The notes below the pieces were generated by a model. That model was not told the DNA's origin. It saw nothing but the letters and a program-made list of their open reading frames with translations, and made no database searches. The position numbers and the translations under genes were made by a program. Positions 17,056 to 31,607 of a stretch of 64,000 nucleotides of DNA are shown piece by piece. This DNA comes from Acinetobacter larvae (lineage in GTDB: Bacteria; Pseudomonadota; Gammaproteobacteria; Pseudomonadales; Moraxellaceae), in NCBI RefSeq assembly GCF_001704115.1, contig NZ_CP016895.1, positions 744,001 to 808,000 of the forward strand. The letters are read 5' to 3'. Position 1 is the stretch's first letter. Each line of letters opens with the position of its first letter.

Positions 17056-17156
17056 TTATGTTGCTCATTGCTAATAAAGCAAAACCTTTTAAATGTACCG
17101 ACTGCAAAGCGATCTTATTGCTTGACTTCAATTCGGCTGGAAATTAATCTGCCTTT

Positions 17157-17320
17157 GCTTCAGGTGCTTGATCAAAAAAGTGAAACTGGGAAGTTAGTCT
17201 GTCTGAGTATTTATAGGATTTATCGTGTAAATCTTATGCAAAAGCTAACACTGCCCCCGCAACGGTGAATAGTTATTTTAGCGATAACTTAAGTCCGGAG
17301 ACCGGCCTGTTGTAGTCCTA
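17157..17320 (+). promoter_or_regulatory. Cobalamin riboswitch upstream of btuB
   Basis: The conserved blocks occur in order: TCAGGTGC (17160-17167) with GGGAAG (17188-17193), the ACTGCCCCCGCAACGGTGAA core (17250-17269), and the B12 box AAGTCCGGAGACCGGCCTG (17291-17309). The first block is shorter than in E. coli btuB, and no P6-like insert is visible, as in compact cobalamin riboswitches. Downstream, a GC hairpin (CGCAC/GTGCG, 17445-17459) sits just before the btuB ribosome-binding site, which suggests control of translation rather than termination. Confidence 0.9.
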
Positions 17321-17346
17321 TAACCTGATCTCTATGACCTTATTTT

Positions 17347-28599: not shown

Positions 28600-29805
28600 T
28601 TAGCCTTTAACACATAGAACTTGCTTAAGCGTATGTACGACTTCAATTAAGTCTTGCTGATTCGCCATGACGTGTTGAATATCTTTGTACGCTGCTGGAA
28701 TCTCATCTACAACAGACTTGTCTTTACGACATTCTATGCCATTGGTCTGTGCAATAAGATCTTGTTGACTAAAGACTTGTTTGGCTTTGGAGCGGCTCAT
28801 TTTACGACCAGCACCGTGTGAACAAGAACAAAAAGACTCAGGATTGCCTTTGCCGCGAACAATAAAGGATTGTGCACCCATAGAACCTGGAATAATGCCA
28901 TATTCGCCTAAACCTGCCCGTATGGCACCTTTACGTGTTACATAGACTTCTTCACCAAAGTGCGTTTCTTTTTGCACATAATTATGATGACAGTTAATGG
29001 CTTCTTTGGTCATTTGAAAACTAGGTAGCAATGGACGAATTGCCTCTAGCACCAAACGCATCATTTCACGTCTATTTTCATAGGCATAGTGTTGAGCCCA
29101 TGCCACTGCTTCAACATAGTCGTCAAAGCTAGTCGAACCTTCAGCAAAATAAGATAAGTCTTTATCTGGCACATGTCCAAAACGATGTTGCGCTTCTTTC
29201 TTGGCACGTTCAATAAAATAAGTACCAATTACATTGCCTAAACCACGACTACCTGAATGTAGCATAATCCAAACATCTTGATTCTCATCGACACACAGTT
29301 CTATAAAGTGATTGCCTCCACCGAGTGTGCCTAACTGTTTCTGCCAAGTACTGTTAAAGTGTCTTAGCATACGCGTTAACGCAGGATGCTTACGTGTAAT
29401 CACTTGTAGTTGTTTGTCGAGTGGGCTGAGAGTAGAGGCTTTGGCTTTAATTTGTTTATGCATTTCAAAACCCACAGGAACTTTACGCTCAATTGCATTA
29501 CGCAACGCGCTTAAGTTGTCAGGAAGTTGAGCCGCTTTTAAACTCAAACGTAATGCATTCATACCACAACCAATATCAACCCCAACAGTCGCTGGAATAA
29601 TGGCATTTTTGGTCGGAACTACGCTGCCTACAGTCGCACCTTTACCAACATGTACATCAGGCATCACCGCAATATGTGAATGTACAAATTGCAGTTGTGC
29701 CATTTTTCGTAATTGAATCAGACTTTCTTCATCAACATCTTGGGTATAAATTTTTACGGGAACGCCATATACCGCTTTGGCGTTTAATATCATTTGTATG
29801 CCCAT
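28600..29805 (-). CDS. rtcB: RNA-splicing ligase RtcB
   Basis: A 401-aa GTP- and Mn-dependent ligase that joins 2',3'-cyclic phosphate and 5'-OH RNA ends, in tRNA or rRNA repair. Metal-binding residues lie in VMPDVHVGKGATVG, VGVDIGCGMNA (Cys), GTLGGGNHFIEL and HSGSRGLG; the GMP-accepting His is in CSHGAGRKMSR (about residue 335). The N-terminus is shorter than in archaeal forms, and the family length 380-410 fits. The ribosome-binding site at the start is weak; the region upstream carries a promoter, small ORF and terminator described below. The cyclase gene rtcA and the regulator rtcR are not adjacent, and sigma-54 sites are not seen. Confidence 0.95.
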   Translation of the reverse strand: MGIQMILNAKAVYGVPVKIYTQDVDEESLIQLRKMAQLQFVHSHIAVMPDVHVGKGATVGSVVPTKNAIIPATVGVDIGCGMNALRLSLKAAQLPDNLSALRNAIERKVPVGFEMHKQIKAKASTLSPLDKQLQVITRKHPALTRMLRHFNSTWQKQLGTLGGGNHFIELCVDENQDVWIMLHSGSRGLGNVIGTYFIERAKKEAQHRFGHVPDKDLSYFAEGSTSFDDYVEAVAWAQHYAYENRREMMRLVLEAIRPLLPSFQMTKEAINCHHNYVQKETHFGEEVYVTRKGAIRAGLGEYGIIPGSMGAQSFIVRGKGNPESFCSCSHGAGRKMSRSKAKQVFSQQDLIAQTNGIECRKDKSVVDEIPAAYKDIQHVMANQQDLIEVVHTLKQVLCVKG

Positions 29806-29853
29806 TATTTTTACTCGAACATTTTATAGTTGTTGTGCCCGTTTTTTAGTCAT

Positions 29854-29879
29854 AAAAAAACCTAGCCAAATGCTAGGTT
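29854..29879 (-). terminator. Intrinsic terminator between the rtcB leader and rtcB
   Basis: On the minus strand AACCTAGC (29879-29872), loop ATTTG, GCTAGGTT (29866-29859), followed by six to seven T. It sits about 50 bases before the rtcB ATG, so transcription from the leader promoter would often end here. Confidence 0.8.
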
Positions 29880-29943
29880 GTTTGCATTCGGGCACATGCG
29901 ATAATTTAAATGCACGTGTCCGTGAGTTGACGCATGCTATTTA

Positions 29944-29970
29944 TTAAGTGTTTATTTCCAAATTTTGCAT
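29944..29970 (-). CDS. Candidate eight-codon leader peptide upstream of rtcB
   Basis: ATG-CAA-AAT-TTG-GAA-ATA-AAC-ACT-TAA encodes MQNLEINT. The Shine-Dalgarno GAGGAGG ends five bases before the ATG, far stronger than that of rtcB. It could couple ribosome movement to the hairpins that follow. No runs of a single regulatory codon are present, so amino-acid attenuation is not clear. Confidence 0.35.
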   Translation of the reverse strand: MQNLEINT

Positions 29971-30029
29971 GACATCCTCCTCATTTATCTGTTGGCTAAA
30001 TTGTCAGAAATTGCAATTTAGTGCGGGCT

Positions 30030-30057
30030 ATTATAGACATAGATTTTAAGCCGTCAA
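30030..30057 (-). promoter_or_regulatory. Near-consensus sigma-70 promoter driving the rtcB leader
   Basis: On the minus strand TTGACG (30057-30052), a 16-base spacer, and TATAAT (30035-30030). Start about 30023. The -35 hexamer lies within one arm of the nested inverted repeat at 30049-30104. Confidence 0.65.
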
Positions 30058-30104
30058 GTCATCTCGCAAATTGCTTTGCGAAATATTGATCGCGCTTGAC
30101 GGCT
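30049..30104. repeat. Nested inverted repeat overlapping the leader promoter
   Basis: Outer arms AGCCGTCAAG (30049-30058) and CTTGACGGCT (30095-30104) are perfect complements; an inner hairpin TCGCAAA (30064-30070), loop TTGC, TTTGCGA (30075-30081) sits in between. It follows the lysP stop but lacks a T-run, so a plain terminator is unlikely. Possible operator or REP-like element. Confidence 0.6.
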
Positions 30105-30131
30105 GAATCTACTGATATGAATAGAATGGCT

Positions 30132-31607
30132 TTATATTTCGCGATCAGTATTCATTGGTTTAACATCCATGTCTTGGTAAGAAACTAATTTGGTTCTGTA
30201 TTTAAACTTATAACCTAACCAAATGACCAAGAATAATGGAATGGTAATATAGGTTGATAATAAACCGACCCAGTTAATTTTATCGCCGATAATGGCTTCG
30301 TAATTTTGTCCCAACACGATGATCGAACATAAAATAAATGCAAACCACGGTGCAAAAGGGAAGAACTTGGCACGGTAAGCGAGATCCTCAAGTTTATAGC
30401 CCTGAGCAATATAGCCTTTACGAAAGCGATAATGTGAAATGGCAATGCCGAGCCATACGATAAAGCCACACATACCCGACATATTGAGTAACCAAGTAAA
30501 GACTTGTTGTTCACCAATAAAAGTGGTTAAGAAGCACAGTGCTGCAACAGCGGTGGTTGCATATAAGGCATGCATGGGCACACCACGGCGATCAAGTTTG
30601 GCAAACCAGCGTGGCGCTTTACCATTTTGTGCCATGTTGAATAACATACGGGTTGAAGAATACATGCCTGAGTTACCCGCAGATAAAATGGCAGATAAAA
30701 TAACAGCATTCATCATACCTGCTGCAAAAGCAAAGCCAGCACGCTCTAAAATTAAGGTAAAAGGTGAAAGTGTAACGTTACCAACCGTACCTTCGGCGGC
30801 AAGATTAAGGTTTGGATCGGTATAGGCAATCAGCGTACCAATAATAAAAATACAGACAATATAAAATAATAGAATTCGCCAGAAAATCTGTTTGATGGCA
30901 AGTGGAATGGTTTTTTTAGGGTTTTTTGATTCACCTGCCGCGACTCCGACCATTTCAGTGCCTTGGAAGGAGAAACCTGCAACCATGGCAACACCAATCA
31001 TGGCTTGTAAACCACCGACAAAGGGTGCATCACCTGTGGTCCAGTTTTTCGCAATACTTTCTGTTGGTGACAGCATAATATTGGCGATCATATAGATGCC
31101 GACAATAATAAAGAAAATAATGGCAATAACTTTAATCAATGAAAATAAAAATTCACTTTCACCAAATCCACGGACGGTGAGCGCATTAATGCAGAAAATG
31201 ACGCCTAAAAATAAGGCACTCCAATAGAAACCGGGGATATCTGGTAGCCAAAATTTCATAATAAATTGGACGGCAACCAATTCAAAGGCAACTGTAATTG
31301 CCCAGTTATACCAATAGTTCCAGCCTAATGCAAAACCAAAGCCTTCTTCTACATATTTATTACCATAGGTAAAAAAAGCACCGGAAGTGGGGTTATGCGT
31401 GGCAAGTTCACCTAAGCTGGTCATCAAGAAGTAAATCATGATGCCGATTAATGCATAGGCCAGTAAAGCACCGCCAGGGCCTGCTTGACTGATGGTTGTT
31501 CCTGATGCCAAAAATAATCCGGTACCAATTGAACCACCAATCGCAATCATATTTAAGTGACGCGCGCCAAGCTTGCGCTGGAGTTTCCTGAGATCTGTGC
31601 TGCTCAT
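30132..31607 (-). CDS. lysP: Lysine-specific permease (amino-acid/polyamine/organocation family)
   Basis: A 491-aa permease of twelve membrane helices that resembles E. coli LysP along its full length. Matching stretches include LGARHLNMIAIGGSIGTGLF near residue 12-31, SGAFFTYGNKYVEEGFGFA, GWNYWYNWAITVAFELVA, FSFQGTEMVGVAAGES, and AISHYRFRKGY. It imports lysine by proton symport. The start MSSTDLRKLQRKL fits. No cadaverine-pathway genes are adjacent. It is followed by rsmC 18 bp upstream in reverse direction, i.e. the rsmC gene precedes it on the same strand; the two may be co-transcribed. Confidence 0.9.
   Translation of the reverse strand: MSSTDLRKLQRKLGARHLNMIAIGGSIGTGLFLASGTTISQAGPGGALLAYALIGIMIYFLMTSLGELATHNPTSGAFFTYGNKYVEEGFGFALGWNYWYNWAITVAFELVAVQFIMKFWLPDIPGFYWSALFLGVIFCINALTVRGFGESEFLFSLIKVIAIIFFIIVGIYMIANIMLSPTESIAKNWTTGDAPFVGGLQAMIGVAMVAGFSFQGTEMVGVAAGESKNPKKTIPLAIKQIFWRILLFYIVCIFIIGTLIAYTDPNLNLAAEGTVGNVTLSPFTLILERAGFAFAAGMMNAVILSAILSAGNSGMYSSTRMLFNMAQNGKAPRWFAKLDRRGVPMHALYATTAVAALCFLTTFIGEQQVFTWLLNMSGMCGFIVWLGIAISHYRFRKGYIAQGYKLEDLAYRAKFFPFAPWFAFILCSIIVLGQNYEAIIGDKINWVGLLSTYITIPLFLVIWLGYKFKYRTKLVSYQDMDVKPMNTDREI

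What the first reader, a model, noticed from the sequence alone, without database searches (positions are those of the whole stretch)
29806..30104. Attenuator-like leader or small RNA upstream of rtcB
The minus strand has a near-consensus promoter (TTGACG-N16-TATAAT), an 8-codon frame with a strong GAGGAGG site, an 11-bp hairpin, and an intrinsic terminator, all within about 170 bp, and then rtcB with a weak ribosome-binding site. GUGCCCG before the terminator is complementary to CGGGCAC after it. rtcB regulation by an attenuator would be new; in E. coli rtcBA uses sigma-54 and RtcR. A small RNA substrate for RtcB is another idea.
Basis: partly seen in the sequence, partly recalled or inferred. 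Interest (0 to 1): 0.7.

Follow-up and report, generated by a model that had tools for sequence, protein, structure and literature searches.

The report
Translation-sensing leader upstream of rtcB
A stretch of RNA in front of a bacterial RNA-repair gene looks like a switch that lets the gene be read when ribosomes are stuck; in Acinetobacter baumannii the same RNA is already known as the small RNA AbsR28, but had not been tied to the repair gene in the papers searched.

Summary
All 78 Acinetobacter rtcB genes of the window's type found in 175 genomes have the same device upstream (77 by script, 1 by eye): sigma70-type promoter, strong Shine-Dalgarno, 7-10 codon frame, hairpin, terminator. It also precedes rtcB in six genomes of three other genera. 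The frame is conserved; the peptide is not.

Overlapping helices emerge: P1 (over the Shine-Dalgarno), P2 and terminator, against P_alt, which excludes P1. P1, P_alt and P2 covary. In folding, a ribosome near the leader start removes P1 and allows P_alt; without a ribosome P1 and P2 form, with one at the stop P2 forms. In A. baumannii, rtcB topped the tigecycline response (252-fold; PMC7652931).

The terminated leader matches Rfam RF02606, AbsR28, published as a trans-acting small RNA; its reported seed AGGA is the leader's Shine-Dalgarno.

Weak points: marginal antiterminator energetics; in 7 of 20 clusters P2 outweighs P_alt; an absR28 deletion reportedly left the downstream gene unchanged; no bench test ties leader to rtcB. 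Verdict: ribosome-controlled attenuator, new variant of a known kind.

The parts
30030..30057 (-). sigma70-type promoter TTGACG-N16-TATAAT of the leader
   Evidence: in 17 of 20 sequence clusters the best promoter match scores 10 or 11 of 12 (9% of mononucleotide-shuffled trials do), spacing 16 in 18 of 20
29976..29982 (-). Shine-Dalgarno GAGGAGG of the leader frame; also in the 5' strand of P1
   Evidence: AGGAGG in 64 of 77 and GGAG in 77 of 77 leaders; duplex energy with the anti-SD -12.3 here, against -2.5 for rtcB
29944..29970 (-). leader frame MQNLEINT plus stop (8 codons)
   Evidence: frame conserved in 77 of 77, peptide not
29967..29982 (-). P1, 5' strand (SD and start codon); pairs with 29924-29937
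   Evidence: covariation
29924..29937 (-). P1, 3' strand
29933..29943 (-). P_alt, 5' strand (starts right after the stop codon, shares GCAUG with P1)
29907..29916 (-). P_alt, 3' strand (overlaps upper P2)
29912..29922 (-). P2, 5' arm CGGACACGUGC
29889..29899 (-). P2, 3' arm GCAUGUGCCCG
29884..29891 (-). antiterminator strand CCGAAUGC, complementary to 29866-29873 in the terminator
   Evidence: -11.2 kcal/mol; nearly invariant in relatives, so no covariation
29859..29879 (-). intrinsic terminator hairpin, followed by the U tract
   Evidence: 98.8% of cells paired
29835..29841 (-). X, CGGGCAC after the terminator, complementary to GUGCCCG (29889-29895); role unknown
   Evidence: 77 of 77 leaders at -8 kcal/mol or better
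29832..30001 (-). match to Rfam RF02606 AbsR28
   Evidence: 41.9 bits (gathering score 50), E 3.1e-8, full length of the model
28600..29805 (-). rtcB, RNA ligase, the controlled gene
   Evidence: (PF01139, E 2.9e-129); the only RtcB match (E <= 1e-60) in the window's own genome

Best explanation
This is the 5' leader of rtcB, a ribosome-controlled transcription attenuator. RNA polymerase starts at a sigma70-type promoter and by default stops at the terminator, releasing a leader RNA of about 170 nt (AbsR28 in A. baumannii). If no ribosome loads, P1 sequesters the SD, P2 forms and the terminator works. If a ribosome runs to the stop codon it covers the strand behind the stop, so P_alt cannot form, P2 forms and termination also follows. 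If a ribosome sits at the start or first codons (tetracycline-type inhibitors, lack of usable tRNA) it blocks P1 but leaves the P_alt strand free. P_alt then forms before the P2 3' arm is made, P2 is weakened or delayed, its 3' arm pairs with the terminator's 5' half, and polymerase reads into rtcB. Translation arrest would thus call up the RNA ligase that repairs tRNA and rRNA. Shown: conservation, placement, covariation of P1, P_alt and P2, and that P1 and P_alt share a strand. Inferred by folding: control by ribosome position. Inferred and weakest: the antitermination step. From papers on other strains: induction of rtcB by tetracyclines.
For: (1) Element upstream of 78 of 78 main-type rtcB genes, in none of the second-paralog upstream regions examined (17 of 50), and upstream of rtcB in six genomes of three other genera. 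(2) Swap test on 20 clusters: own strands pair better than swapped ones, P1 -15.3 vs -11.8, P_alt -9.65 vs -5.73, P2 -15.3 vs -11.9 kcal/mol, 0 of 5000 permutations as good for each; cells paired and covariation score exceed all 500 shuffles for each. (3) P_alt begins at +25 to +38 from the leader AUG in the 20 clusters, beyond the assumed footprint of a start-site ribosome, and lies at the stop codon. (4) Nascent RNA up to the end of the P_alt 3' strand, pairs between the strand regions: ribosome at start P1 0, P_alt 12.7; at the last codon P_alt 1.1; without ribosome P1 10.4, P_alt 3.2. Up to the terminator loop, ribosome at start, P_alt outweighs P2 in 13 of 20 clusters, the window among them (9.1 against 1.7 bp). 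(5) 67 of 77 leaders have 70 nt or less between U tract and rtcB AUG, leaving hardly any room for a promoter of rtcB's own. (6) The terminator loop is nearly invariant (AUUC or AUUU), while other Acinetobacter terminators of similar stem have other loops. (7) rtcB and the gene directly downstream had the highest induction, 252-fold, under tigecycline (PMC7652931), and rtcB rose 2.6-fold under minocycline (PMC9741440). (8) Published AbsR28 ends at about 180 nt in the growth phases tested (PMC3976366), as default termination predicts.
Against: At equilibrium the terminator wins in the full RNA with or without ribosome. Antiterminator stability is 3.65 kcal/mol without a ribosome, 3.71 with one at start, and 5.43 only if P2 is also prevented, against 12.2 for the terminator; for the window sequence it does not rise (3.6, 2.2, 3.5). 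Up to the terminator loop with a ribosome at start, P2 outweighs P_alt in 7 of 20 clusters, which hold 53 of 77 leaders. In the window and four other clusters P_alt is sizeable at the shorter length even without a ribosome. Against shuffled strands, P_alt beats 95% of shuffles in 12 of 20 clusters only. In the pair counts two measures do not exceed shuffles: pairs with double changes (P1 242 of 500 shuffles as high, P_alt 115 of 500) and further pair types (P1 492, P_alt 84, P2 plus terminator 71 of 500); and P_alt slid by one column scores almost as high (0.211 against 0.233). PMC11796373 reports no polar effect of an absR28 deletion on A1S_2839, the gene downstream. Which rtcB the tetracycline papers measured is inferred from the adjacent gene and locus numbering, not checked. 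Confidence was 0.70 before the recount and is 0.65 now.
Confidence: 0.65

Rival explanations
1. It is a stand-alone trans-acting small RNA gene (AbsR28) that merely sits before rtcB; its terminator is its 3' end and it represses other mRNAs such as tssM by base pairing.
For: RF02606 match. PMC11796373 (abstract, sections 9-11 read) reports base pairing with tssM with a compensatory mutation, Mn2+ dependence and T6SS derepression in the deletion. The leader survives in four Acinetobacter genomes where rtcB is lost or broken and in G122.
Against: Hardly any room for a separate rtcB promoter in 67 of 77 genomes. Nothing in a trans model predicts a conserved 7-10 codon frame ending at P_alt, or mutually exclusive covarying helices. 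The reported seed A27-A30 coincides with the leader's Shine-Dalgarno (positions 27-30 of the Rfam consensus, assuming the paper numbers alike). In G063, G082, G136 and G122 the leader now precedes the small gene that elsewhere follows rtcB, so it may still act in cis.
Confidence: 0.15
2. The leader is an attenuator, but its input is a metal or protein rather than the ribosome: for example Mn2+, which AbsR28 is reported to bind and which RtcB needs as cofactor (the latter recalled).
For: PMC11796373 section 10: KD about 6 micromolar for Mn2+ and altered lead cleavage. The YACGG stretch between P1 and P2 is strongly conserved.
Against: Conservation of SD, start codon and frame speaks for translation. 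The conserved stretch is largely explained by P1 and P2. Metal binding was measured on AbsR28 alone, not on rtcB expression.
Confidence: 0.08
3. The leader senses loss of initiation (for example ribosomes lacking the 16S anti-SD after toxin cleavage): no initiation means readthrough.
For: Leader SD very strong, rtcB SD weak (-10.3 against -3.2 kcal/mol mean); RtcB religates truncated 16S rRNA in E. coli (as stated in PMC9741440).
Against: Without a ribosome the leader folds into P1, P2 and terminator, the OFF state.
Confidence: 0.04
4. The leader RNA is a substrate of RtcB, cleaved and re-ligated.
For: CGGACA motifs flank the terminator in many relatives.
Against: The window itself has CGGGCAC at the second site; no cleavage data were found or sought.
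Confidence: 0.02

Closest known systems
AbsR28, Rfam RF02606 (A. baumannii small RNA)
   Same: Same locus type (after a lysine-type permease gene) and same RNA: named A. pittii locus L142 scores 167 bits, the best relative 181; the published probe carries the same SD, frame and P1 strand.
   Different: Published as an independent trans-acting small RNA. No link to rtcB, leader frame or attenuation appears in the passages and sections read. The window's copy is below the gathering score.
Ribosome-mediated transcription attenuators (trp, his; tet(M)-type drug-inducible leaders; recalled)
   Same: Promoter, short leader frame, alternative helices chosen by ribosome position, intrinsic terminator before the gene.
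   Different: No run of one regulatory codon; SD and start codon are themselves in the first helix; a chain of five helices; the gene is an RNA ligase.
RtcR/sigma54 control of rtcBA (E. coli, Salmonella)
   Same: Same enzyme, induced by agents that impair translation (PMC5175333 and PMC12606134, passages read).
   Different: There RtcR and sigma54 do the sensing (damaged tRNAs: PMC7790460, start of abstract in a listing only). In Acinetobacter this type fits the second rtcB paralog: sigma54-type site within 2 mismatches in 15 of 17 examined upstream regions against 1 of 77 for the leader-controlled one; a gene that I recognise as rtcA by recall lies downstream in 3 of 6 second-paralog regions fetched.
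Aar small RNA of Acinetobacter
   Same: Acinetobacter small RNA of similar size.
   Different: Different RNA: PMC5320573 (passages) lists aar at another place than absR28.

Membership tests
Ribosome-mediated transcription attenuator | Short leader frame with SD between promoter and terminator | tested here: met
   77 of 77
Ribosome-mediated transcription attenuator | Intrinsic terminator ahead of the controlled gene, no promoter between | tested here: met
   terminator in 77 of 77 extracted leaders; 70 nt or less to rtcB AUG in 67 of 77; a promoter overlapping the terminator was not searched for
Ribosome-mediated transcription attenuator | Mutually exclusive helices, one of them blocked by a ribosome on the frame | tested here: met
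   P1 and P_alt share a strand and both covary; footprint folding
Ribosome-mediated transcription attenuator | Antiterminator able to beat the terminator in the ON state | tested here: inconclusive
   complementarity conserved but not covarying; energetically weak
Ribosome-mediated transcription attenuator | Regulatory codons matching the signal | tested here: inconclusive
   no single-codon run; Leu in 33 of 60 codons 2-4; fits a general arrest sensor
Ribosome-mediated transcription attenuator | Readthrough rises in vivo when ribosomes stall on the leader | not testable with these tools
   only indirect: rtcB induction by tigecycline and minocycline in print
AbsR28 (RF02606) | Covariance-model score at or above gathering (50 bits) | tested here: not met
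   window 41.9 bits, so the window copy is not filed as a formal member. Of the leader-bearing loci scanned, 12 reach 50 bits (55.9-181) and 7 (50.7-87); 2 and 5 more match below it; L265, L270 and L227, L265, L267, L270, L271, L272 do not match at E 0.01
AbsR28 (RF02606) | Same genomic place, after a lysine-type permease gene | tested here: met
   PRK10836-type permease upstream; PMC3976366 places AbsR28 after a lysine-specific permease gene
sigma54/RtcR-controlled rtcB | -24/-12 promoter | tested here: not met
   1 of 77 with 2 mismatches or fewer (L045; not the window), against 15 of 17 second-paralog regions
Trans-acting small RNA | Conserved single-stranded seed | tested here: inconclusive
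   published seed coincides with the SD, paired in P1

The most novel reading that the evidence does not exclude
AbsR28 is not primarily a small RNA gene but the released half of a two-input attenuator: it reads ribosome arrest through its leader frame and Mn2+, the metal RtcB needs, through its folded core, and so makes RNA repair answer to stalled translation with no damage-sensing protein. Its reported trans effects would then be by-products of an exposed or sequestered Shine-Dalgarno.
Probability: 0.15. Interest if true: 0.85.

Novelty: new variant of a known kind. Interest (0 to 1): 0.7.

Why it matters
It would give RNA repair a second control route that needs no RtcR and no damaged-RNA ligand: the arrested ribosome itself calls for the ligase. 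It would explain why rtcB tops the tigecycline response of A. baumannii, which its authors left open between a direct drug response and a toxin-antitoxin effect. And it would recast a published trans-acting small RNA as a cis-acting leader whose reported seed is a ribosome-binding site, changing how deletion and overexpression experiments on it should be read.

Tried and rejected
A conserved peptide: rejected, sequences differ widely. A single-amino-acid sensor: not supported; Leu is frequent in codons 2-4 but absent from codons 2-5 in one of 20 clusters and from the L272 leader. A pseudoknot of P_alt with lower P2: considered; the loop between the P_alt and P2 3' strands looks too short in several leaders (about 3 nt in L028, by eye), so I treat them as alternatives. 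Helix X as antiterminator: rejected because its 3' strand is made after the terminator. In the folded readthrough RNA X and P2 compete (means 1.9 and 6.9 bp over 19 of 20 clusters, L004 left out); whether X changes access to the rtcB start was not tested (the script's option for it did nothing). Aar: different locus. PMC10653896 (one passage) lists an RtcB family protein at 0.40 in a trmB mutant comparison; not used.

Spread beyond the family: in 244 genomes of the order the two best non-self hits (L275, L276) are not upstream of rtcB and lack the anatomy; the other weak hits were taken as chance and not examined. Of 11 family hits outside the genus at E below 1e-3: 6 lie before rtcB, 1 before the small gene with no rtcB between (L267), 1 degenerate (L274), 3 terminator-like only (L273, L277, L278). 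Hits above 1e-3 were not examined except L279 and L280 (neither is the leader).

Rows dropped: L040 (locus G175) failed the script's pattern and is in no count of 77; it was read by eye on the longer fetch L227. Eight of the 22 non-self hits of the first DNA search are terminators only. L090 was cut by a contig end. Helix statistics use one representative of each of 20 clusters.

Full report
WHAT IS THERE. On the minus strand, between an amino-acid permease gene of the PRK10836 type (30132-31607) and rtcB (28600-29805), lies a leader of about 250 bp. It holds a sigma70-type promoter (11 of 12), GAGGAGG, the frame MQNLEINT, a hairpin (P2), a terminator with a T run, and 48 nt later the start of rtcB with a weak SD. 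Single-sequence statistics are modest for promoter and terminator and good for folding (z -4.1).

CONSERVATION. RtcB was found at E <= 1e-60 in 80 of 175 genomes of the genus. There are two paralogs: 78 matches at 80-100% identity to the window (main type) and 50 at 57-60%. All 78 main-type genes carry the leader (63 fetched upstream regions, 14 earlier loci, the window): 77 by script, one (L040/L227) by eye. None of the 17 second-paralog regions I fetched (of 50; one cut short) has the core; 15 of those 17 have a sigma54-type site within 2 mismatches, against 1 of 77 main-type regions. A gene that I recognise as rtcA by recall is seen downstream of the second paralog in 3 of 6 regions fetched. 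The exact core pattern occurs once each in 68 of 175 genomes, 0 in the backwards control; 4 of those 68 have no RtcB match, and there the rtcB place holds a remnant or nothing. The genus is Acinetobacter: named records with leader and rtcB start include A. pittii ATCC 19004, A. haemolyticus and A. brisouii.

LEADER FRAME. 77 of 77 leaders have GGAG before an ATG and a stop after 7-10 codons; shifted frames do so in 15 and 7 of 77. Peptides vary (MPTLQGKTD, MLTLENTTN, MLLLEINKY, MPKQERNFK). The SD is strong (mean -10.3 kcal/mol over 20 clusters), that of rtcB weak (-3.2).

HELICES. On 20 clusters (85% identity) three helices covary: P1 (SD and start codon with the strand before P2), P_alt (strand from the stop codon on, with the upper 5' side of P2) and P2. 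In swap tests 0 of 5000 permutations matched the real pairing for each. Pair counts: P1 83% of cells paired with 10 double changes, P_alt 69% with 22, P2 plus terminator 97.8% with 21; cells paired, double-change cells and covariation score exceed all 500 shuffles in each. Against this: the number of pairs with a double change (242, 115 and 1 of 500 shuffles as high for P1, P_alt, P2 plus terminator) and of pair types (492, 84, 71 of 500) are not high except the former for P2 plus terminator; P_alt slid by one column scores nearly as high; the shuffles ignore relatedness; P1 and P_alt are misregistered in part of the alignment. RNAalifold on its own finds P2 and terminator only. Against dinucleotide-shuffled strands P_alt stands out in 12 of 20 clusters. 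A fourth pairing, the P2 3' arm/linker CGAAUGC with GCAUUCG of the terminator, is the only candidate antiterminator I found; it is nearly invariant, so swapping shows nothing (2081 of 5000). Together they form a chain: P1, P2, terminator (OFF) or P_alt, antiterminator (ON).

RIBOSOME POSITION. I blocked an assumed 30-nt footprint and folded nascent RNA. Up to the terminator loop, means over 20 clusters: no ribosome, P1 13.4 and P_alt 0.2 bp; ribosome at start to codon 4, P1 0-0.3 and P_alt 7.2-7.6 bp; at codon 7 to stop, P_alt 0-0.1 and P2 7.3-7.6 bp. Cluster by cluster, with a ribosome at start P_alt outweighs P2 in 13 of 20 (window: 9.1 against 1.7 bp), but these hold only 24 of 77 leaders; in 7 clusters with 53 leaders P2 outweighs it. 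Up to the end of the P_alt 3' strand, before P2 can form, pairing between the P_alt regions is strong with a ribosome at start in 20 of 20 clusters (8.9-16.5 bp), but in five clusters, the window among them, it is sizeable (6.4-15.4 bp) without a ribosome too. The antiterminator gains less than 2 kcal/mol on average, nothing in the window, and the terminator wins at equilibrium. So the last step would have to be kinetic.

OTHER GENERA. A covariance model run on 149 genomes of the family finds the leader outside Acinetobacter. Six hits in three genera sit before rtcB (L265, L266, L268, L269, L271, L272). Three of them were folded (L265, L266, L272): each has its own P1, P2 and terminator and, with a ribosome at start, a P_alt-type helix and a 7-pair antiterminator; with a ribosome at the last codon P2 returns. 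No convincing case was found in 244 genomes of the order, of which the two best hits were looked at.

HELIX X. GUGCCCG/CGGGCAC is real: in 77 of 77 Acinetobacter leaders the P2 3' arm can pair with a site after the terminator (mean -12.8 kcal/mol, shuffled -6.7), mostly 15-27 nt before the rtcB AUG. It persists where 47-241 nt separate it from the terminator (7 of 77). Swapping weakens it only a little (157 of 5000 permutations as good). I cannot give it a role.

KNOWN RNA. A permissive Rfam search matches the leader to RF02606, AbsR28 (window 41.9 bits, below gathering 50; A. pittii 167; best 181). PMC3976366 (passages read) found AbsR28 in A. baumannii by Northern and RACE, about 180 nt, between a lysine-specific permease gene and A1S_2839 (a hypothetical protein; by synteny it should be the rtcB place, not checked), expressed at all growth phases tested; its table lists AbsR28 at 99% in strain AB0057. 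PMC5320573 (passages) maps it in AB5075. PMC11796373 (abstract, outline, sections 9-11, passages) treats it as a Mn2+-dependent trans-acting repressor of tssM, seed A27G28G29A30, and reports no polar effect of its deletion. Those four bases fall on the SD (Rfam consensus positions 27-30), and the stem said to hide the seed looks like P1. PMC11426457 (passages) reports base substitutions in or near the A. baylyi homolog in five of six LB-evolved MGD6 strains. 'rtcB' occurs 0 times in the main text of PMC11796373, PMC3976366 and PMC11472050.

FUNCTIONAL DATA IN PRINT. PMC7652931 (abstract, section 7, methods, passages): 2.5 ug/ml tigecycline, 30 min, rtcB and the hypothetical gene directly downstream were the most induced, 252-fold. 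The main rtcB is followed by a 52-aa frame in three genomes whose leaders cluster with that of A. pittii (L228, L229, L290), which fits; the window lacks that frame. PMC9741440 (passages): half-MIC minocycline, 2.6-fold. In E. coli rtcBA is induced by tetracycline (PMC5175333, PMC12606134, passages). Searches on Acinetobacter small RNA plus rtcB, rtcB attenuators, rtcB induction, Acinetobacter transcription attenuation, an rtcB RNA motif and AbsR28 listed no paper that, by title, start of abstract and the passages read, describes this link; subscription journals are mostly not held, and supplements were not read.

VERDICT. A conserved attenuator-type leader of rtcB: comparative support strong, ribosome control likely, antitermination step unproven. 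Tetracycline action, RtcB's need for Mn2+, and the trp/his/tet(M) comparison are recalled knowledge.

Noticed in passing
window 17145-17324 (+): Cobalamin riboswitch, 63.6 bits, the only gathering-level Rfam match in the window.
   Followed up: no
L228, L229, L230, L231, L272, L289, L290 downstream of rtcB; L223, L224, L226, L267, L270: A 52-62 aa basic protein gene (RN.VALSPLLHKGG..ETEKP.A.HR) follows rtcB in these relatives but not in the window, G107 or G083; where rtcB is lost it follows the leader (directly in L224, L226, L267, L270). No Pfam or NCBIfam match to the one protein scanned.
   Followed up: partly
L233, L234: Distant homologs of that small protein in other gammaproteobacteria (8 of 185 genomes matched; two loci read) lie near rtcB or an rtcB-like C-terminal end, so the link seems older than Acinetobacter.
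   Followed up: partly
L087-L103: The second rtcB paralog has a sigma54-type site and, by eye in most copies, a conserved hairpin around CCTGCCTGCAA-CGCTTGGCAGGCAGG before its start.
   Followed up: no
L223, L225 (and L224, L226): rtcB reduced to a remnant or gone while the leader stays; L225 keeps a pseudogene with in-frame stops and a large internal loss (by eye).
   Followed up: partly
window 30050-30115: Inverted repeat GCCGTCAAG...CTTGACGGC whose right arm contains the -35 box; perhaps the permease's terminator or an operator (by eye).
   Followed up: no
L004, L039: About 240 nt between terminator and helix X site, with similar internal sequence in both, as if one insertion.
   Followed up: no
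leader frames of 20 clusters: Leu fills 33 of 60 codons 2-4, which looks more than expected for a neutral frame (no background computed).
   Followed up: no
L059, L070, L080: Two copies of CGGACAG between terminator and rtcB start instead of one (by eye).
   Followed up: no
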